From Halobacteriovorax marinus (GTDB lineage: Bacteria > Bdellovibrionota > Bacteriovoracia > Bacteriovoracales > Bacteriovoracaceae): a DNA stretch of 64,000 bases. Both the position numbers and the translations under genes were made by a program. Positions 3,499 through 13,049 of the stretch are shown here, piece after piece. The notes below the pieces were generated by a model that saw only the letters and a list, made by a program, of their open reading frames with translations, made no database searches and was not told the origin of the DNA. Numbering within the stretch: the stretch's first letter is position 1; each line of letters starts with the position of its first letter. Location: positions 496,001 to 560,000 of the forward strand of contig MAAO01000004.1 in the NCBI GenBank assembly GCA_002163155.1, given 5' to 3'.

Positions 3499-3647
3499 CT
3501 TAAAGATTTCTCCTTGTATTTCATCCCACCGTGACAAGAAGCGTTTGACTCACTGAAAGAAAGATATTGTGCAAGTAGTAATTTTCCCATAAATCTAATT
3601 TCACAAAGTTTGCGAAGTTATGAGTTTAGTTTTTTGGGGAGAAGTTA

Positions 3648-4298
3648 ATGAAAACAAATTATTCAGAGTTAAAACAATTTAAACATGACATCAAGTCACC
3701 GATTGCAGCACTTAGAACGCTTACAAAATTACGAAGCACCTGGAATGCTTCTGAACAAACAGTGCTGAAGTTAGCATTTGAAAGAATAGAGAACCTTATT
3801 GTAAACCTCGAAAATGAAGAGACCTACAAAAGTTGTCGTCCATTCACATTGGCCAAAGATCTTTTGAAAGAGAAGAGAATTCTTATAAAAGGAAAATCAA
3901 TCTCACTAAAATTAAACTTTGAAAGAGAAGCAAGATACGCCATTTGTAATATTCAACCCTCAGAGTTTAAGAGGATCTTATCAAATCTCGTTAATAACTC
4001 CCTTGAATCAATAGACGATAGAGGGTTTGTCGTTTTAAAGGGCGTTTTAAAAAATGATAAACTCTTTATTTCAGTCCTAGATAATGGACATGGAATTCTA
4101 TCTGATGACTTGAGCAATGTGACAAAATTAGGCTGGACTCAAGGCAAGTCTAGTGGACAAGGACTTGGACTCTATCATGCGAAAGAAACTCTTTCGAAAT
4201 GGAGTGGTAAACTTCATATCAATTCAATATTTAATCTGGGAACAAAAATCACACTGGCGCTCCCTACTAAACCTACTCAATTGGCGATTGCAGTCTAA
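3648..4298 (+). CDS. Orphan sensorless histidine kinase
   Basis: Small soluble histidine-kinase core of 216 residues with no membrane segment and no recognisable sensor domain. It starts almost directly with the H-box FKHDIKSPIAALR (His13), followed by the N-box SNLVNNSLES (about 112-121), G1 box DNGHGI and G2 box GQGLGLYHAK of the HATPase domain. ATG 3648 follows a good ribosome site (GGGGAGAAG). No response regulator is adjacent, so its partner is elsewhere; it may be a subunit that is told what to do by another protein. A weak hairpin terminator follows. Confidence 0.85.
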   Translation: MKTNYSELKQFKHDIKSPIAALRTLTKLRSTWNASEQTVLKLAFERIENLIVNLENEETYKSCRPFTLAKDLLKEKRILIKGKSISLKLNFEREARYAICNIQPSEFKRILSNLVNNSLESIDDRGFVVLKGVLKNDKLFISVLDNGHGILSDDLSNVTKLGWTQGKSSGQGLGLYHAKETLSKWSGKLHINSIFNLGTKITLALPTKPTQLAIAV

Positions 4299-4324
4299 GA
4301 TCGCAACACCTAAATCAATATTCT

Positions 4325-4361
4325 AAACTCAGGTACAAACAATGTGTTTTACCTGAGTTTT
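4325..4361 (+). terminator. Probable terminator after the orphan kinase
   Basis: Inverted repeat AAACTCAGGTA/TACCTGAGTTT with a loop of about 14 bases and a short T-run. It lies between the kinase gene and metF. Confidence 0.55.
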
Positions 4362-4443
4362 ACAATCAAAATCCTGTTAAATTCGCGCATTCAAAGTTAG
4401 AATATTCCTTTAATACAAGCCATTATTAAGGACCGTTTTCACG

Positions 4444-5394
4444 ATGAAGATTATAGAACACCTAGATCGCGCCAAGAATAAAGAATTACTTTGTAGCTAT
4501 GAAATTGTTCCGCCTCCAAGAGGAAGATCAGTTCAAGATATTATTGATATTGTTGAAGCCATTCAACCATATAATCCCCCTTGGATTGATGTGACCAGTC
4601 ATGCAGCAGGTGCTTTTTATAATGAAAAAGCTGATGGCTCAATTGAAAGGAAGATCTTTAAGAAACGTCCTGGGACTATCGGGATCTGTGGAATTATTCA
4701 GAATAGATTTAATATTGATACTTGTGTACACCTTCTCTCTCTTGGATTTACAAAAGAAGAAACTGAAGATGCACTTATCGAACTTAACTTCTTAGGAATT
4801 CATAATGTTCTTGCCTTAAGAGGCGACGCTCCAAACTATAATAAGAAAATCGACAAAACGAGACACACAAATAAATACGCCATTGAACTTGTAGAACAAA
4901 TCTCTGAAATTAAAAGAGGAGAATTTTTACACGATATTTCTGGAGCAAGACCCCTAGACTTCTGTACAGGAGTTGCAGGTTATCCCGAAAAACATTTTGA
5001 AGCTCCTAATATGAGTTTTGATATTAAAATGCTTAAAGCAAAAGTTGATGCTGGAGCTGACTATATTACAACTCAAATGTTCTTTGATAATGAAAAGTAT
5101 TTCAGCTTTGTAAAAGATTGTCGTGATGCGGGAATCACTGTTCCTATAATTCCTGGAATAAAAATTATTAAGAACCTAAATCAATTGGCCTCTATTCCTA
5201 AACATTTCTACGTAGACTTTCCAAATGAGTTTGTCGATGAGGCCATGGAAAATCAAGAACACATAAAAGATATTGGTCTTGAATGGGCAATGAAGCAATG
5301 CCAGGGTCTTGTAGATGCCGGCGCACCTTGCTTACATTTTTATATTATGAATGACACTAAATCAGTGATCGAAGTCGTTAAGAAGTTTAGATAG
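4444..5394 (+). CDS. metF: 5,10-methylenetetrahydrofolate reductase
   Basis: Reduces 5,10-methylene-THF to 5-methyl-THF, the methyl donor for MetH. The FAD TIM-barrel motifs are visible: an N-terminal YEIVPPPRGRS with the catalytic Glu, NVLALRGDAP in the middle, DYITTQMFFDNEKY after it, and VPIIPGIKII. At 316 residues it is slightly longer than the E. coli enzyme. Ribosome site AAGGA lies about ten bases before the ATG. The stop codon TAG overlaps the ribosome site of metH, so the two are translated as one operon. Confidence 0.95.
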   Translation: MKIIEHLDRAKNKELLCSYEIVPPPRGRSVQDIIDIVEAIQPYNPPWIDVTSHAAGAFYNEKADGSIERKIFKKRPGTIGICGIIQNRFNIDTCVHLLSLGFTKEETEDALIELNFLGIHNVLALRGDAPNYNKKIDKTRHTNKYAIELVEQISEIKRGEFLHDISGARPLDFCTGVAGYPEKHFEAPNMSFDIKMLKAKVDAGADYITTQMFFDNEKYFSFVKDCRDAGITVPIIPGIKIIKNLNQLASIPKHFYVDFPNEFVDEAMENQEHIKDIGLEWAMKQCQGLVDAGAPCLHFYIMNDTKSVIEVVKKFR

Positions 5395-5403
5395 GAGTCT
5401 GAC

Positions 5404-8400
5404 TTGTCAGAACTAAGACCATATAAGAAATCAGGAAATGATCTTCTAAAACTATTAGAAGAAAGAATTGTTTTTATGGATGGAGCCATGGGCACCATGA
5501 TCCAAAGATATAAACTAGAAGAAGAAGATTTTAGAGCGGAGAGATTTAAAGCTCACGAATCTTCTCTAAAAGGAAATAACGACCTTCTCAGTTTAACCAG
5601 ACCAGATGTTATCGAGGCCATTCATATAGAATACCTTGAGGCCGGATCTGATATTATAGAAACAAATACATTTAGTGCGACAAAAATTGGTCAAGCAGAT
5701 TATCACCTTGAAAGTGTCGCTTATGAAATCAATGTTGAATCCGCAAAGATTGCAAAAACTGCTTGTGAAAAAGTCATGGCAAAAGATCCTAGTAGACAAT
5801 GCTTTGTTGCCGGAGCGCTAGGTCCTACAAATAAAACAGCTTCCATGTCGCCAGATGTGAACAACCCAGCATACAGGGCAGTTTCTTTTGATGATCTTGT
5901 TGATAATTATTACGAACAAGCAAAGGGATTAATAGAAGGAGGAGTAGATATTCTCCTACCTGAGACAACTTTTGATACCTTAAATATTAAGGCCGCAATT
6001 TTTGCTATAGAAAAACTCTTCGATGAATTAGATTACAGAGTTCCCGTTATGCTCTCTGTAACTATCACAGATGCATCAGGTAGAACTCTTTCAGGTCAAA
6101 CCATTGATGCTTTTTGGAACTCCGTTCGCCATGCTAAACCATTGAGCGTTGGAATCAATTGTGCTCTTGGTGCAGAAGAAATGCGTCCTTACATGGACAG
6201 ACTTTCTCAAATAGCAGATTGCTACACCAGTTGTTATCCAAATGCTGGACTTCCTAATCCTCTGAGTGACACTGGTTACGATGAGCTACCAAATGATACA
6301 GCAGGTTTTTTAGAAGATTACGCTGAATCAGGATTTTTAAATTTAGTTGGTGGATGTTGTGGAACAACTCCAGCTCACATCAATGCCATAAGAAAATTCT
6401 TAGAAGATAAAGAACCAAGAGTAAAACCTCACCTAAAAGAGGTCATGAGACTCTCTGGTCTAGAACCTCTCCTCATTGATAGAGAAGATGAAAACCGACC
6501 TTATTATATGGTCGGAGAAAGAACTAACGTTACGGGTTCTCCTCGCTTTGCCAAACTAATCAAAAATGGTGACTTTGATACCGCACTTGAAGTTGCCAGA
6601 CAACAAGTTGAAAACGGTGCAAATATAATTGATATAAATTTTGATGAGGGAATGCTCGACTCAAAAGCTTGTATGATCAAATTTATGAACCTAATCGCTT
6701 CCGAACCTGAAATATGTAAAGTTCCAATTATGATTGATAGTTCTAAATGGGAAGTTATTGAGGAAGGTTTAAAGTGCTTACAAGGAAAAGGAATTGTAAA
6801 TTCTATTTCCTTAAAAGAAGGTGAAGAAAAGTTCATAGAGCATGCTCAACTTATAAAGAGATATGGAGCTGCAACAGTAGTTATGGCCTTTGATGAAAAA
6901 GGACAAGCTGCAGACAAAGCAGATAAAGTTAGAATTTGTAAAAGGGCCTATGATATCCTCGTCGATAAAGTAGGATTTGACCCTAGAGACATAATTTTTG
7001 ATCCCAACATCCTAACCGTTGCTACAGGTATGGATGAACATAATAACTACGCCGTAGATTTTATTGAAGCCGTTAAAGAAATTAAAGAAAAATGCCCAGG
7101 TGTTCTTACCAGTGGTGGAGTTTCAAATGTTTCGTTCTCATTTAGAGGAAATAATGTTGTCAGGGAAGCTATCCATTCTTCATTTCTTTATCATGCCATT
7201 AAAGCTGGTCTTGATATGGGAATTGTAAATGCTGGAATGCTAACAGTATATGAAGATATCGAACCTACACTTTTAAAGTTAGTTGAAGATGTTCTCTTAA
7301 ATAGATCGACAGAAGCTACAGAAAAACTTGTAGAGCATGCTGAAAAAATTAAAGGAACAGGAAAGAAGAGAGACGTAAAAGACGATAAATGGAGACATGG
7401 TACGTTACAAGATCGTATGACCCATGCTCTAGTAAAAGGAATCTCGACTCACATTGAAGAAGATACAGAAGAAGCAAGATTAGAACTCGGAATCCCTTTA
7501 AATGTTATTGAAGGTCCTTTAATGGAAGGGATGAAAGTTGTAGGAAAGTTATTTGGTGAAGGAAAAATGTTTCTTCCTCAAGTTGTTAAGTCTGCCAGAG
7601 TTATGAAGCAGGCAGTAGCTTATCTTGATCCTTTTATGGAAGAAGAGAAGAAAAATAATAAAAATGCTAGAAAACAAGGAACCTTTGTCATTGCCACAGT
7701 AAAGGGTGATGTTCACGATATTGGAAAAAATATTGTGTCTGTTGTACTTGCCTGTAACGGGTATGAAGTTATAGACCTTGGAGTCATGGTAAGTTGCGAA
7801 GAAATCATAAAAAAGGCAAAAGAACATGATGCTAGTATCGTGGGAATGAGTGGACTCATTACCCCGTCTTTAGATGAAATCATTCACAACTCAAAAGAAT
7901 TTCAAAGACTAGGTTTCACTTGCCCAATTCTAGTTGGTGGAGCCACAACCAGTAAGGCCCACACCGCTATTAAAATAGCCCCTCACTATGAAGGTCCCAT
8001 TGTTCAAGTTGGCGACGCATCTCTAGTAGTTGAAGTTTGCTCGAAGTTATTAAACCCAGCAACTGTAGAACAATATACAAAAGAGTTAAAAGATAAGCAG
8101 CTCAAGGTAAAAGAAAACTGGGAAGCAGGTGACGGAGCAAAAACAAAGTTATTGGATTTCTCTAAAGCGAAAGATTGGAAAGCGCTAACCGACTGGAAGT
8201 CGATAGAAATTGCTAAGCCAGATTTCATTGGGACTAAAGTTTTCAATGACATTGCACTCGAAGAAATTCTTCCTTATATTGACTGGTCCCCCTTCTTTTG
8301 GACTTGGGAACTAAAAGGAACTTATCCAAAAATATTAAACAATGCAAAGTATGGAGAACAAGCAACCTCTCTTTTTGAAGATGCTCAAGTTCTACTCAAA

Positions 8401-9126
8401 AAAATATTAGACGAAAAACGATTTTCTCCAAAGGCAATTATTTCTATTCACACTGCGAATTCAGTTGGAGAGGATGTAGAGATTTATAATGAAGAAAATG
8501 AAGTCGTTGAAACTTTTCATTTCCTAAGACAACAAAAAGATAAGACAGAGCACAAACCCTATATGTCATTATCGGACTTCATTGCTCCAAAAGAAAGCAA
8601 CAGAACTGACTACTTAGGTAATTTTGTTGTGACGATGGGTTACGAAGTTGAAACATTTGCCAAGATTTATCAAGATCGTGGGGATGATTATAGCTCCATT
8701 CTAATCAAGGCATTAGGAGATCGTTTTGCTGAGGCCTTCGCCGAACTGATGCATAAGAAAGTTCGTGATATCTTTGGTTACGGTAAAGAAGAAAGTTTTT
8801 CTAACGAAGAATTAATTAAAGAGAAGTACAGAGGTATAAGACCAGCTCCTGGTTACCCATCTTGTCCTGATCACACAGAAAAACCTCTCATGTGGGACGT
8901 TTTAAATGTGGAAGAGGCAATTGGAGTATCACTAACAGAGAACTGTGCCATGAACCCTCCCTCTTCAGTCTCAGGACAATACTTTTCTCATCCAAAGTCT
9001 AAGTACTTTATTCTAGGACCCATTGGTAAGGATCAAGTCAGCGACTACGCCAAGAGAAAGGGCATGACTAAAAAAGAAGTTGAACGTTGGTTAGCACCAA
9101 ATCTTGGATATAATCCAGAGGCATAA
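5404..9126 (+). CDS. metH: Cobalamin-dependent methionine synthase
   Basis: Transfers the methyl group of 5-methyl-THF to homocysteine through methylcobalamin. All modules are present in 1240 residues. The homocysteine domain has zinc cysteines at about 253 (GINCALGA) and 318-319 (GGCCGTT). The pterin domain starts at [11 protein letters not shown] (about 370). The cap is followed by the B12-binding domain with DVHDIGKN (about 769-776; the His is the lower cobalt ligand). The reactivation domain has [15 protein letters not shown] (about 1146-1160), which binds AdoMet. The start is TTG 5404 with AGGAG upstream, overlapping the metF stop. It depends on cobalamin, which the btu operon at 24308-29201 would supply. 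Confidence 0.97.
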
Positions 9127-9576
9127 TTGAGCGATTTATTTAAATCTATTGCACATAACAAAAGTGACAAGAATGAACTTTGGTTAAAGTGTATCGCTAA
9201 TGCTCGCTCAATTATTCATGCGAGAGATATGTCTGACCAAGAGATTGAAAAGATTGCCAACGCAAGTAGTTCACCAGAAGATTTCAATGTTATCGTTCGC
9301 TGGATATATACCTTTACCAGAGAGAATCCTAACGGCCACCAAGGTATTCTAAGTCTTTTTAAAAATACAGATTCTTCTCGCTACGACCTAGTAGAATGGA
9401 TCGAGGCCATTAATCACTTTAACTCGTGGTTAGAGGAACATGAACGTAAGACTGATTGGATTAAACTTCTTGGATATCTACAGTGTTGTGGTGAGTCCCC
9501 AGAGAATGTGGATATAAAACACAACTTTGTTTCTCTTCTAAAGAATATGCTCGAGACTTACGGTTATGAAGGCTAG
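9127..9576 (+). CDS. Unknown protein in the metFH operon
   Basis: Predicted soluble, mostly helical protein of 149 residues with no signal peptide, no membrane segment and no motif I recognise. It starts at TTG 9127, directly after the metH stop codon with zero spacing, and overlaps the start of the next gene by 11 bases, so it is translationally coupled on both sides. Two adjacent cysteines (YLQCCGES) lie near the C-terminus. Position suggests a role linked to methionine synthesis, for example a partner of MetH or of the MetE-like protein that follows, but nothing in the sequence proves it. Confidence 0.75.
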   Translation: MSDLFKSIAHNKSDKNELWLKCIANARSIIHARDMSDQEIEKIANASSSPEDFNVIVRWIYTFTRENPNGHQGILSLFKNTDSSRYDLVEWIEAINHFNSWLEEHERKTDWIKLLGYLQCCGESPENVDIKHNFVSLLKNMLETYGYEG

Positions 9577-10246
9577 GCTACTTCCAACGACAGGAATTGG
9601 CAGTCTCCCCTTCACTAATATCGATCAGGCAATTGAGTTTTCAATGAAATTTGATATCCCCTTTCTTCCAGAACTTCCGAAGTTAGATGGTGATTTCATT
9701 ACCTCATATACTTTAGGTTCTTCCTCATGCTTAGAAGAATTTAGAAATATTACAAAAGAACTTCCTAGAGTCAAATACCAAATACCTTCCCCTGAGTTCA
9801 CTCAGATAACTCCAATCTCGCAATCAAACTCTCTTCTCTTTATAGATGCTCCAACAATTAAAGATTACAGCATACTAGAAAACTTCATTGTTTCATCGAA
9901 GAATGAAATTGGAATACATTGTTGTGGAACTTTTGATCTAGAAAAAATTGTTAAACTAAATATTAAGTTTTTTTCTTTTGATGCCAGACTCATAGAAAAT
10001 CCAAATGATCTCATGGTAACACTATTACAAAATGGCGTTACCCCTGTCATTGGTATTGTTAGCACTCATAATAAAAAGGCACAACGACCTGAGAATCTGA
10101 GTTCTTGGGTTAAAGTGATCCGAGAATATTCTATGCACTGTTGGCTATCTCCCGCTTGTGGACTAGCAGAATTCAACAACGCAGAATGTGAAAGAACGTT
10201 GAGTCTTCTTCAGGAAATCAGAAATGAAATTCTATTAACTCAGTAA
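9566..10246 (+). CDS. Short MetE-like (core methionine synthase type) zinc protein
   Basis: Small protein of 226 residues related to the C-terminal half of cobalamin-independent methionine synthase (COG0620/UROD-like barrel). It opens with TTGIGSLPFTNIDQAIEF, a typical N-terminal strand and loop of such barrels. The zinc-type ligands are in place: His118-x-Cys120 (GIHCCG) and Cys198 in LSPACGL, like the HxC and PDCGL motifs of MetE. The acidic ligand of MetE (Glu665) is not clearly kept. It is much shorter than usual core-MetE proteins (about 310-350 residues). It sits behind metF-metH, so it may assist methyl transfer to homocysteine or bind a methylated corrinoid (inference). The 3' end overlaps the convergent lhgO by 29 bases. 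Confidence 0.7.
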   Translation: MKARLLPTTGIGSLPFTNIDQAIEFSMKFDIPFLPELPKLDGDFITSYTLGSSSCLEEFRNITKELPRVKYQIPSPEFTQITPISQSNSLLFIDAPTIKDYSILENFIVSSKNEIGIHCCGTFDLEKIVKLNIKFFSFDARLIENPNDLMVTLLQNGVTPVIGIVSTHNKKAQRPENLSSWVKVIREYSMHCWLSPACGLAEFNNAECERTLSLLQEIRNEILLTQ

Positions 10247-11306
10247 GATATTTTGCAATAGCTGGAGCACTAGTTAAACCAGGGGACTCAATTCCACATA
10301 GCTCGAAGTAATTCTTAAGACCATAGTCCTCTCCACTTTTAATCCAAAAATCATTATAGATTTTACCTCTAAGCTTTATCTTGGGCCTAATTCCACAAAA
10401 ATCTCTTTCTAGGTCACCCTTAGAAATAGACTTAAATATTTTAGATATTTCTGGATACATTTGATCAATGAGATTTTCTCTTTGTGAGTAATCTACTCCT
10501 TGGACATCTTCAGTATTTGGACCAAATCTAATGAGACCATCTTCTCCAAAACTAGTGTGAACGCCGAGACCCTTAAGACCAGGTAGCGGCACGGGATAAA
10601 TCAATGACTTATTATAGTACTTCTTTTTAAGTTTAAGGTAATTCCCTTTAACATAATGATTTTCTAAATCCGAGAGTCCTAGCATTTTTCTAATTTCAAT
10701 AGCACCAAGACCTGCGGCATTTACCAAGTGATCACAAGTCACACTTTCCAAATCAGTTTCGAGATGAAAAATATTATTCTTATATGTAATCTTTTTTATT
10801 TTTTGATTTTTTAAAAGATAAAAACTTTCAGATTGGAGTTTTATTTCAAGATCTTTTAAATAAAGAGGTATATTTAAAATAGACGTTTTTTTAGAAAAAA
10901 AAGCTTTCCTAACATTTAGAAACTGCTGAAGGGGTTTTAAATCTTCATTTTCACACCATGAAATTTCTTTAACTCCATTATCCTTGGCCCTATCGTAAAG
11001 ACGTTCTAACTCAATTATTTCTTCTTGATTGGTGGCCACAAGATATTTTCCGCAGTTATTCACAAACGGACCATTTTCACTATGCCAAAGATCATTTCCT
11101 TTTATGCAGAGTAGATGCTTTAAACTATTTTTCTCATAGTAGAGTCCTGCGTGTAAGACTCCACTGTTTCGATGCGTGGAATGTTCCCCAAGGTAGAGTT
11201 CTTTTTCAAAGAGAGCTATCTCTAACTTAGGATATTTTCTTTGAATTTCTTGGGCGATAGAGAGTCCAATGACTCCTCCGCCAATAATAACAAGAGGTAT
11301 ATGCAT
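10218..11306 (-). CDS. lhgO: L-2-hydroxyglutarate oxidase family FAD enzyme
   Basis: FAD-dependent oxidase of the DAO fold that converts L-2-hydroxyglutarate to 2-oxoglutarate, a metabolite-repair reaction feeding electrons to the membrane quinone pool. The N-terminus carries the dinucleotide motif VIIGGGVIGLSIAQEI, then STHRNSGVLHAGLYY, the family hallmark loop. The C-terminus has FCGIRPKI and YFELCGIESPGLTSAPA, also typical of LhgO. ATG 11306 is chosen because it gives the usual short N-terminus (MHIPLVIIGGG) and lies seven bases after the stop of the preceding gene; upstream in-frame starts at 11330 and 11378 would overlap that gene. No clear ribosome site is visible, which suggests translational coupling. 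Confidence 0.87.
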   Translation of the reverse strand: MHIPLVIIGGGVIGLSIAQEIQRKYPKLEIALFEKELYLGEHSTHRNSGVLHAGLYYEKNSLKHLLCIKGNDLWHSENGPFVNNCGKYLVATNQEEIIELERLYDRAKDNGVKEISWCENEDLKPLQQFLNVRKAFFSKKTSILNIPLYLKDLEIKLQSESFYLLKNQKIKKITYKNNIFHLETDLESVTCDHLVNAAGLGAIEIRKMLGLSDLENHYVKGNYLKLKKKYYNKSLIYPVPLPGLKGLGVHTSFGEDGLIRFGPNTEDVQGVDYSQRENLIDQMYPEISKIFKSISKGDLERDFCGIRPKIKLRGKIYNDFWIKSGEDYGLKNYFELCGIESPGLTSAPAIAKYLTELIEFHF

Positions 11307-11313
11307 TTTGTAA

Positions 11314-11802
11314 TTATATGCAACTAACATCCGATTCGACAAGGTCAGAATATTTAGAACATCCCCAATAAACAACACGAAGGTCCTTCGTCTTATTTTT
11401 AGATTTAATTCGACTGTGTTCTACTCTAATATTTTCGATAAAAGTTTCAACTTTCTTCAATTCAATTTTTAATAGTTTCTCTTCGTAACCTGTAAGATAA
11501 ACCTTTTTCAATTTTAATGAATCCTTTTCTCCAAGTAATTCAATTGAAGCATTCAAAATATCCTTAATTTCTTTTTTCTTATTTGATAATTTATTTATTT
11601 CAAAAATCCATGACTCTTTATTTTCCATATTCAAATTATATATACCTTTCGTATAGATAAGAATATTTCTCATTAAGAGTTCGGGGACAATACTATTAAT
11701 CACTTCTAATTCAATTCCTGTATCTTCAGCAATTTTATCAATTGTTTTTTCCCCAAAGGAAAGAGATTCTAATATCATTCTTTCAGTAAGTAATAATTCC
11801 AT
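11314..11802 (-). CDS. Unknown protein with a winged-helix-like N-terminus
   Basis: Protein of 162 residues that I do not recognise. The first 60 residues (TERMILESLSFGEKTIDKIA, then a second helix and a strand pair ending in GIYNL) look like a winged-helix DNA-binding fold of the type that reads 'short helix - turn - recognition helix - wing'. Residues 65-140 form a charged, lysine- and glutamate-rich helical region, possibly a coiled coil. The C-terminus ends in a short tail with two cysteines. It is the middle gene of a three-gene operon between a small DNA-binding-type protein and lhgO, so a regulatory role for lhgO is plausible but unproven. Confidence 0.65.
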   Translation of the reverse strand: MELLLTERMILESLSFGEKTIDKIAEDTGIELEVINSIVPELLMRNILIYTKGIYNLNMENKESWIFEINKLSNKKKEIKDILNASIELLGEKDSLKLKKVYLTGYEEKLLKIELKKVETFIENIRVEHSRIKSKNKTKDLRVVYWGCSKYSDLVESDVSCI

Positions 11803-11811
11803 CTATTTCTC

Positions 11812-12150
11812 CTAAGCTGCCATCTTTTGCGCCACTACATTGGCCTTAAACTGAGCAATACGAACTCTTCTTTTCATATAATTACTTATTTCAGATACTC
11901 CTCTTGGAGATAAAATTTTGTCACATTCTTTTGCAAGATTTTCAATTTCACTTCGGCTATCAAGTAGAGTTGAAATCCGGTGTTTTAGAGTTAAATACTC
12001 AGATAATTTCATTTCATGACCGTTCATTATTCGGAAAAGCCTAGTTTTCTGGATTCCACAATCATTGGCCATATCCCTAATGGTATTTCGGCTTAAAAGC
12101 CCCATGTAATCATCAATTATCTTGTTTTGAACTTCTTGGTAAACACTCAT
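11812..12150 (-). CDS. Small helix-turn-helix-like protein
   Basis: Protein of 112 residues. The segment NTIRDMANDCGIQKTRLFRI (about 21-40) reads like a helix-turn-helix, followed by a conserved-looking helix KLSEYLTLKHRIS. No enzyme motif or membrane segment. ATG 12150 is chosen because a strong AGGAG lies five bases before it; an in-frame TTG further upstream lacks this. First gene of the operon with 11314-11802 and lhgO. A similar domain layout occurs in small regulators and in proteins that bind phage or plasmid DNA; the actual target is unknown. Confidence 0.7.
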   Translation of the reverse strand: MSVYQEVQNKIIDDYMGLLSRNTIRDMANDCGIQKTRLFRIMNGHEMKLSEYLTLKHRISTLLDSRSEIENLAKECDKILSPRGVSEISNYMKRRVRIAQFKANVVAQKMAA

Positions 12151-12278
12151 ATTTTCTCCTCTCTGACGTTCCCTACTCAAGATAAAGCAAAGCCTGTGCC
12201 ATTATTTGAGTTTGCTAAAGTGTTGATTTTTCAATAACCTTAAAGAAGAAGTTCTCTTTTCGAAACAATGGATCCAGA

Positions 12279-13049
12279 ATGTTAAAAATAGCTAGTGCAA
12301 ATATTCGTTTTGATAACCCACATGATGCTCCAAATGACTGGGCCGGAAGAAGAGAAGTTTTGGCAAACTCTCTTAAAACATTTTCACCACATATTTTTGG
12401 AACTCAAGAAGGTAGACAACCTCAACTCAAAGACTTTGAATCACTATTACCAAATCATAAATTAATTGATCTCAATCGAACTTGGATAACTGAAAGAATG
12501 TATCCCTGTATTTTTGTTGATTCCAAAAAGATTGATGTAATAGATAGTGGTGATATCTGGTTAAGCGAAACTCCATTTGAAGCTGGTTCAAAATCTTTTG
12601 AATCTGCCTTTCCAAGACTATGTACTTGGATAAAAGGTGAAGTCATTGAAAGTGGTTTTAAGTTCTTCTATGTGAATGTTCATCTTGATCACGTCTTAAG
12701 TGAAACTAGGGCACAACAAATTCAAGTCCTAATAAATGAAACAAAGAAAATCAATACAGACAATCTTCCAATGGTTATGACTGGTGATTTTAACGAATCT
12801 CCTTTTGAAGAGGTTCGTGAAAAAATTTCAAATCAATTGCCAGAACTCTATGATCCATGGATGAAACTTGGAAAAATAGAAGAAACAAGTTTTCATAAGT
12901 TTGATGGGACGAATGATGAAGGAAGTAGAATCGACTGGATTTTAGTTGATTCTACTTTAAAAACTGAAAATATTTACCTAATGAAAGATCATGTTAAAGA
13001 AATTTATCCTTCTGACCACTTTCTTGTATTTGGTGAATTTACAATTTAG
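12279..13049 (+). CDS. Endonuclease/exonuclease/phosphatase (EEP) family protein
   Basis: Soluble metal-dependent phosphoesterase of 256 residues. EEP motifs occur in order: N-terminal ASANIRFDN, then GTQEG with the metal-binding Glu (about residue 44), VNVHLDHV, TGDFNESP (Asp/Asn catalytic pair, about 168-175), SRIDWILV (about 217) and the terminal YPSDHFLVFGEF with the Asp-His pair. No signal peptide. Family members cleave DNA, sugar phosphates, inositol phosphates or sphingomyelin; the short N-terminus and NDWAGRRE segment resemble the uncharacterised bacterial group often called endonuclease/exonuclease/phosphatase family metal-dependent hydrolases. The 3' end overlaps the convergent psd gene by 11 bases. 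Confidence 0.88.
   Translation: MLKIASANIRFDNPHDAPNDWAGRREVLANSLKTFSPHIFGTQEGRQPQLKDFESLLPNHKLIDLNRTWITERMYPCIFVDSKKIDVIDSGDIWLSETPFEAGSKSFESAFPRLCTWIKGEVIESGFKFFYVNVHLDHVLSETRAQQIQVLINETKKINTDNLPMVMTGDFNESPFEEVREKISNQLPELYDPWMKLGKIEETSFHKFDGTNDEGSRIDWILVDSTLKTENIYLMKDHVKEIYPSDHFLVFGEFTI

What the first reader, a model, noticed from the sequence alone, without database searches (positions are those of the whole stretch)
9566..10246. Minimal MetE-like zinc protein coupled to metF-metH
A 226-residue protein keeps the HxC and PxCGL zinc motifs of core MetE but is about 100 residues shorter than known core-MetE (Mes) proteins and sits in an operon that already has MetH. It may be a new, very small homocysteine methyltransferase, a partner of MetH, or a decaying enzyme.
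Basis: partly seen in the sequence, partly recalled or inferred. Interest (0 to 1): 0.6.

Follow-up and report, generated by a model that had tools for sequence, protein, structure and literature searches.

The report
Shrunken MetE-like zinc barrel beside metH
Next to the B12-dependent methionine synthase gene of a Bacteriovoracaceae-like bacterium sits a real, conserved but unusually small (226-residue) relative of the catalytic half of B12-independent methionine synthase that keeps the zinc and homocysteine residues and a complete barrel; what methyl reaction it performs, if any, is unproven.

Summary
Window 9566-10246 encodes a 226-residue MetE-like protein, fourth gene of a metF-metH-ORF149-X operon. 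It scores above the Pfam cut-off for the MetE catalytic domain. It is not decaying debris: all four congeners keep it in place, synonymous changes far outnumber amino-acid changes, and the zinc set His118/Cys120/Asp139/Cys198 plus Asp94 is unchanged in 41 of 41 relatives. AlphaFold2 gives a complete eight-strand barrel (pLDDT 64, pTM 0.68; weak in the first half). The best solved-structure match is MesD 3RPD (Z 13.6, 204 residues aligned). The protein is small because loops between fixed core strands shrank stepwise from relatives of 300-386 residues. Those relatives lie next to metH in 27 other genomes, beside split MetE in another family, and beside iscS or lipB elsewhere. It is not MesB: CoFeSP is absent from the genome. 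I infer a zinc-thiolate methyltransferase of the methionine cycle, possibly fed by MetH, the genome's only detected corrinoid methyl carrier; donor and acceptor are untested. Single-domain MetE-like proteins of unclear function are already known (MesB-like, Rv3015c), so this is a small new variant. ORF149 is an unannotated MetH-linked family (39 of 41).

The parts
4444..5394 (+). metF, 316 aa, methylenetetrahydrofolate reductase; first gene of the operon
   Evidence: PF02219 1.1e-66; TIGR00676 289.7 bits, just under its cut-off of 293.7
5404..9126 (+). metH, 1240 aa, cobalamin-dependent methionine synthase with homocysteine, pterin, two B12 and activation domains; zinc cysteines NC and GGCC intact
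   Evidence: PF02574, PF00809, PF02607, PF02310, PF02965; NF007024 1993 bits; motif check
9127..9576 (+). ORF149, 149 aa helical protein of unknown function, a MetH-linked family
   Evidence: no Pfam, PHROGs or PDB relative; 51 genomes carry it, 39 of 41 checked lie just downstream of metH on the same strand
9566..10246 (+). The finding: 226 aa minimal MetE-like zinc barrel (P0001); its ATG overlaps the end of ORF149 by 11 bases, so translation is probably coupled (inferred)
9599..9610 (+). GSLP, residues 12-15; Ser13 matches MetE Ser433, which binds the carboxylate of homocysteine
   Evidence: alignment: Ser in 39 of 41, Asn in one, missing in one truncated ORF; residue roles from PMC7857596
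9845..9847 (+). Asp94, matches MetE Asp599 (binds the amino group of homocysteine); 41 of 41
   Evidence: PMC7857596
9917..9925 (+). His118-Cys119-Cys120; His118 and Cys120 are predicted zinc ligands; 41 of 41
   Evidence: core-MetE His215/Cys217
9980..9982 (+). Asp139, predicted fourth zinc ligand, 21 residues after His118 exactly as Asp236 after His215 in D. mccartyi core-MetE; 41 of 41
10151..10165 (+). PACGL, residues 196-200; Cys198 is a predicted zinc ligand; 41 of 41

Best explanation
P0001 is a working, miniaturised member of the single-domain MetE-like group. A bare (beta/alpha)8 barrel holds zinc by His118, Cys120, Asp139 and Cys198 at the C-terminal ends of its strands. It binds a small thiol, most likely homocysteine, with Ser13, Asp94 and perhaps Glu36, activates it as a zinc thiolate and takes part in a methyl transfer to (or from) that sulfur inside the methionine cycle run by the co-transcribed metF and metH. 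SHOWN by computation: homology, fold topology, ligand conservation, gene order, purifying selection. INFERRED: zinc binding, homocysteine as ligand, catalysis. GUESSED: the methyl donor. The only protein of the B12-binding_2 family (the helical cap of methyl-corrinoid carriers) found in this genome is MetH, so if the donor is a methylcorrinoid it should be MetH's own cofactor or free methylcobalamin.
For: PF01717 above cut-off. Profile match to MetE and MesD chains at about 1e-7. AF2 model with eight ordered strands; VIA-align Z 13.6 to 3RPD over residues 1-226, ahead of unrelated barrels at about Z 10 and below. Zinc and Asp94 residues in 41 of 41 relatives, Ser13 in 39 of 41. His-to-Asp spacing of 21, identical to active core-MetE. 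His-Cys-Cys zinc spheres mark S-methyltransferases in this superfamily (PMC10418091). metF-metH-ORF149-X order in 9 genomes; full-length relatives adjacent to metH or a MetH piece in 27 more, to a stand-alone homocysteine-methyltransferase domain in one, and to split MetE in 3. dN 0.33-0.66, dS over 1.5. One PF02607 hit in the genome, inside MetH.
Against: MetH here is complete, with intact homocysteine-zinc cysteines, so a second homocysteine barrel looks redundant. Family f4 has a relative and split MetE but no MetH or PF02607 protein, so a methylcorrinoid cannot be the donor for the whole group. Relatives sit beside iscS or lipB in 18 genomes. The gene is patchy and fast-evolving: MetH is 82-84% identical between congeners, P0001 42-49%. 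Glu of the usual DEP motif is Ala or Asp in this genus. Model confidence in residues 1-90 is low.
Confidence: 0.5

Rival explanations
1. It is a zinc-thiol protein of general sulfur metabolism, as may be the case for the actinobacterial relatives of the Rv3015c type; its acceptor is not homocysteine and the position behind metH is one of several sulfur-related addresses.
For: Ten relatives form one iscS-linked clade and an eleventh (L065, long branch) is also beside iscS, in the same bacterial family; residue 36 in that clade is Thr, Ser or Asn instead of Gln/Glu. A Tsukamurella relative follows cysteine desulfurase and mnmA. Seven relatives follow lipB.
Against: The P0001 clade and its best-scoring full-length relatives are metH-linked, not iscS-linked, and residue 36 is Glu or Gln in them, compatible with a homocysteine amino-group ligand (inferred).
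Confidence: 0.22
2. It is a non-catalytic partner of MetH, for example binding homocysteine or helping MetH loading or reactivation, together with ORF149.
For: Tight and repeated metH linkage; ORF149, itself MetH-linked, lies between them.
Against: Complete conservation of all four zinc ligands and Asp94 argues for chemistry; many MetH operons with ORF149 lack the small protein; relatives exist in genomes without MetH.
Confidence: 0.14
3. It is a decaying core methionine synthase that has lost half of its N-terminal region.
For: About 120 residues shorter than characterised core-MetE; patchy presence in the family; low identity.
Against: Frames intact in all five species of the genus, active-site residues invariant, dN below dS, all eight strands still present; only loops shrank.
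Confidence: 0.08

Closest known systems
MesB / bacterial core-MetE (D. mccartyi cbdbA481; PMC7005905, PMC7857596)
   Same: Single MetE-like barrel; zinc set His-Cys-Asp-Cys with Asp instead of Glu; His-to-Asp spacing 21; Ser and Asp of the homocysteine site.
   Different: 226 instead of 343 residues; no CoFeSP in the genome; MetF and MetH present; 13.6 bits to the Wood-Ljungdahl-linked relative of G028.
MesB-like single-domain proteins in bacteria with other methionine synthases, and actinobacterial Rv3015c-type proteins
   Same: MetE C-terminal-like single domain in a genome with another methionine synthase; function stated as possibly different (PMC7857596) or unclear (PMC4428469).
   Different: About 100 residues shorter; inside a metF-metH operon instead of an iscS-mnmA cluster.
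MesD (3RPD, Shewanella)
   Same: Best structural match, Z 13.6, rmsd 4.1, 204 aligned; same ligand positions by alignment.
   Different: MesD is larger, has Glu as zinc ligand and needs MesX, which was not found here (control silent).
Canonical MetE, catalytic half (PF01717)
   Same: Above the Pfam cut-off; catalytic residues align.
   Different: No folate-binding half; loops between strands cut down.
MtaA/UROD-type methyltransferases
   Same: Same superfamily fold, Z 11-12 to 4AY7/4AY8.
   Different: Lower than MetE/MesD; the NCBIfam MtaA match is far below its cut-off.

Membership tests
MetE-type catalytic barrel (PF01717 superfamily) | Profile score above the curated cut-off | tested here: met
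   29.6 bits against 21
MetE-type catalytic barrel (PF01717 superfamily) | Four zinc ligands H, C, E/D, C in order | tested here: met
   H118, C120, D139, C198; 41 of 41 relatives
MetE-type catalytic barrel (PF01717 superfamily) | (beta/alpha)8 fold like MetE | tested here: met
   Eight strands in order, Z 13.6 to 3RPD; caveat: mean pLDDT 64, low before residue 90
MetE-type catalytic barrel (PF01717 superfamily) | Homocysteine methylation | not testable with these tools
   needs enzyme assay
MesB (bacterial core-MetE) | Genome encodes the Wood-Ljungdahl corrinoid protein CoFeSP (AcsC/AcsD) | tested here: not met
   PF03599 absent from G000 and its four congeners, present in G028 on the contig of its relative
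MesB (bacterial core-MetE) | phmmer score of about 130 bits or more to DET0516 | tested here: inconclusive
   DET0516 not at hand; 13.6 bits to the Wood-Ljungdahl-linked stand-in L089
MesB (bacterial core-MetE) | Zinc set HCDC | tested here: met
MesB (bacterial core-MetE) | Length about 340 residues | tested here: not met
   226 residues
MesD | Partner MesX (PF08908) | tested here: inconclusive
   No hit in eight genomes, but no control genome rang
Canonical or split MetE | Folate-binding N-terminal domain fused or adjacent | tested here: not met
   Not in the operon; P0001 is the only PF01717 hit in the genome

The most novel reading that the evidence does not exclude
A stand-alone minimal MetE-type barrel that takes methyl groups from the cobalamin of its operon partner MetH and passes them to a thiol, i.e. 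a MetH with an external second acceptor module, and the smallest methionine-synthase-type methyltransferase known.
Probability: 0.15. Interest if true: 0.7.

Novelty: new variant of a known kind. Interest (0 to 1): 0.42.

Why it matters
Single-domain MetE-like proteins in organisms that already have another methionine synthase are an admitted gap (PMC7857596, PMC4428469). This series, from 386 down to 215 residues around an unchanged zinc site and repeatedly tied to metH or split MetE, shows which parts of the barrel are needed and gives small, testable representatives. If it is active it would be an unusually small thiol methyltransferase; if it works on MetH it would reveal an unknown branch of B12-dependent methionine synthesis.

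Tried and rejected
MesB or MesD membership: the CoFeSP family is absent and MesX was not found. A dead homocysteine domain in the neighbouring MetH that P0001 would replace: rejected, the zinc cysteines are intact in the MetH proteins that could be read. A truncated fragment missing barrel strands: rejected, spacing analysis and model show loop loss only. phmmer of the single sequence against the PDB gave only chance hits; the family profile was needed. NCBIfam gave no family for P0001. The genome-contig scan returned only two loci, so distribution rests on the genome search. Viral structure library: no match under 1e-3. Rfam: no riboswitch at gathering scores in 3500-12500. Promoter and terminator scans were at chance level. 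The ORF149 model was poor (pLDDT 59.5) and was not searched.

Full report
WHAT IS THERE. The ORF at 9566-10246 on the + strand encodes 226 residues. It is the fourth gene of a tight cluster: metF 4444-5394, metH 5404-9126, ORF149 9127-9576, P0001 9566-10246, with a convergent FAD-dependent oxidoreductase gene behind it. ORF149 starts directly after the metH stop and overlaps the start of P0001 by 11 bases, so one transcript and coupled translation are likely (inferred). No convincing promoter, terminator or riboswitch was found inside. The organism is a Bacteriovoracaceae relative: the contig of congener G004 (172,882 bases) corresponds to 'Bacteriovoracaceae bacterium UBA3083'.

WHAT FAMILY. 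Pfam places residues 103-215 in the catalytic domain of cobalamin-independent methionine synthase at 29.6 bits (cut-off 21). A profile from eleven relatives finds MetE and MesD (3RPD) in the PDB at about 1e-7. It is the only PF01717 protein in the genome, so MetH is the only recognised methionine synthase there.

IS IT FUNCTIONAL. Relatives exist in 63 of 369 genomes of the phylum. In 41 aligned relatives His118, Cys120, Asp139, Cys198 and Asp94 never change, and Ser13 is kept in 39. By alignment these are the zinc ligands and the homocysteine-site residues Asp599 and Ser433 of MetE as listed in PMC7857596. Asp in place of Glu as the fourth ligand is the MesB pattern, and the His-to-Asp distance of 21 equals that of the active core-MetE of D. 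mccartyi (His215, Asp236). In the genus, dN is 0.33-0.66 against dS of 1.5 or more (saturated), so the protein is under purifying selection, while it evolves much faster than MetH (42-49% against 82-84% identity).

HOW IT BECAME SMALL. Distances between landmark residues show what was lost. Ser13 to residue 36 (23) and His118 to Asp139 (21) are nearly constant. Residue 36 to 70 fell from 85-93 in most metH-adjacent full-length relatives to 34, 70 to 94 from 58 to 24, and 94 to 118 from 38 to 24, with intermediate sizes in other lineages. AlphaFold2 with a three-row alignment nevertheless gives eight strands in order (8-10, about 34, 69-71, 88-94, 115-119, 135-139, 159-166, 193-196), pTM 0.68, mean pLDDT 64 with weak confidence before residue 90. 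The best VIA-align match is MesD 3RPD, Z 13.6, rmsd 4.1, 204 residues over 1-226, followed by MetE, MtaA-like and UROD structures, and other barrels at about Z 10 or less. All predicted ligands lie at or just after the C-terminal ends of strands. Distances were not measurable.

NEIGHBOURHOODS. Of the 63 genomes, 28 carry the gene directly beside, on the same strand, a MetH gene, a MetH piece or, in G028, a stand-alone homocysteine-methyltransferase domain. Nine more have it one gene (ORF149) away, and G068 3.4 kb away. The full-length versions mostly accompany a second, more divergent type of MetH that scores 1128-1192 bits instead of about 1630-1790, but at least 18 genomes with such a MetH lack the protein. 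In family f4 it precedes split MetE. In other Bacteriovoracaceae-type genera it follows iscR-iscS, and in f3 it follows lipB in a pyruvate dehydrogenase operon (gene names of these neighbours are my reading of the translations). A Tsukamurella relative follows cysteine desulfurase and mnmA. In G028 the relative stands with CooC-like and CODH/ACS-like genes and CoFeSP lies on the same contig, the true MesB setting. The tree groups the lipB and split-MetE sets as single clades; metH-linked members are spread over several branches.

MECHANISM. The most economical reading is a zinc-thiolate methyltransferase of the methionine cycle. His-Cys-Cys zinc spheres are typical of S-methyltransferases of this superfamily (PMC10418091). 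The donor is open. In the window genome the only PF02607 (B12-binding_2) protein found is MetH itself, which makes MetH-bound methylcobalamin the candidate if a corrinoid is used; but f4 has the protein without MetH or any PF02607 match, so this cannot hold for the whole group. The iscS and lipB settings leave a wider sulfur role possible.

COMPARISON. It works like a core methionine synthase on paper, but it is not MesB: that family is defined by the Wood-Ljungdahl corrinoid protein, which is absent, and the similarity to a real MesB setting is weak (13.6 bits). It is best filed as a small variant of the MesB-like / Rv3015c-like single-domain MetE relatives whose function the literature calls possibly different or unclear.

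VERDICT. Observation confirmed, decay unlikely, function plausible but unproven; unusually small among characterised relatives rather than a new kind of system. The more unexpected by-product is ORF149, an unannotated family found immediately downstream of metH in 39 of 41 genomes checked.

Noticed in passing
window 9127-9576 (ORF149); relatives in L093-L104 and L107-L118: An all-helical (predicted) 149-aa family with no Pfam, PHROGs or PDB match, found in 51 of 369 genomes of the phylum and immediately downstream of metH on the same strand in 39 of 41 checked; a candidate unknown MetH partner.
   Followed up: partly
L061-L069 (iscR-iscS-X), L091 3670-6978 (iscS-mnmA-X, Tsukamurella): Single-domain MetE-like genes follow cysteine desulfurase in two distant phyla, which suggests a sulfur-transfer role for that branch; residue 36 (Gln/Glu elsewhere) is Thr/Ser/Asn in most of the Bacteriovoracaceae-family members of that branch.
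   Followed up: partly
L070, L072-L075, L078, L082: In family f3 the relative follows lipB, mostly before a ferredoxin-like gene, in the pyruvate dehydrogenase operon; reason unknown.
   Followed up: no
L071, L076, L077: A genome family without MetH carries split MetE (separate folate-binding and catalytic proteins), reported as mostly archaeal, next to the MetE-like gene.
   Followed up: partly
L089 (G028 C66): A genome of the same family as the window with CooC-like, CODH/ACS-like and CoFeSP genes beside a MesB-like gene and a stand-alone homocysteine methyltransferase domain; a Wood-Ljungdahl cluster is unexpected in this group.
   Followed up: partly
G046, G326, G355 and others: Two MetH types coexist in the phylum, about 1630-1790 and about 1130-1190 bits to TIGR02082; ORF149 goes mostly with the first, the full-length MetE-like protein mostly with the second.
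   Followed up: partly
window 9848-9850 (residue 95): The Glu of the usual Asp-Glu-Pro motif is Ala here and Ala or Asp in all congeners; it may alter substrate or activity.
   Followed up: no
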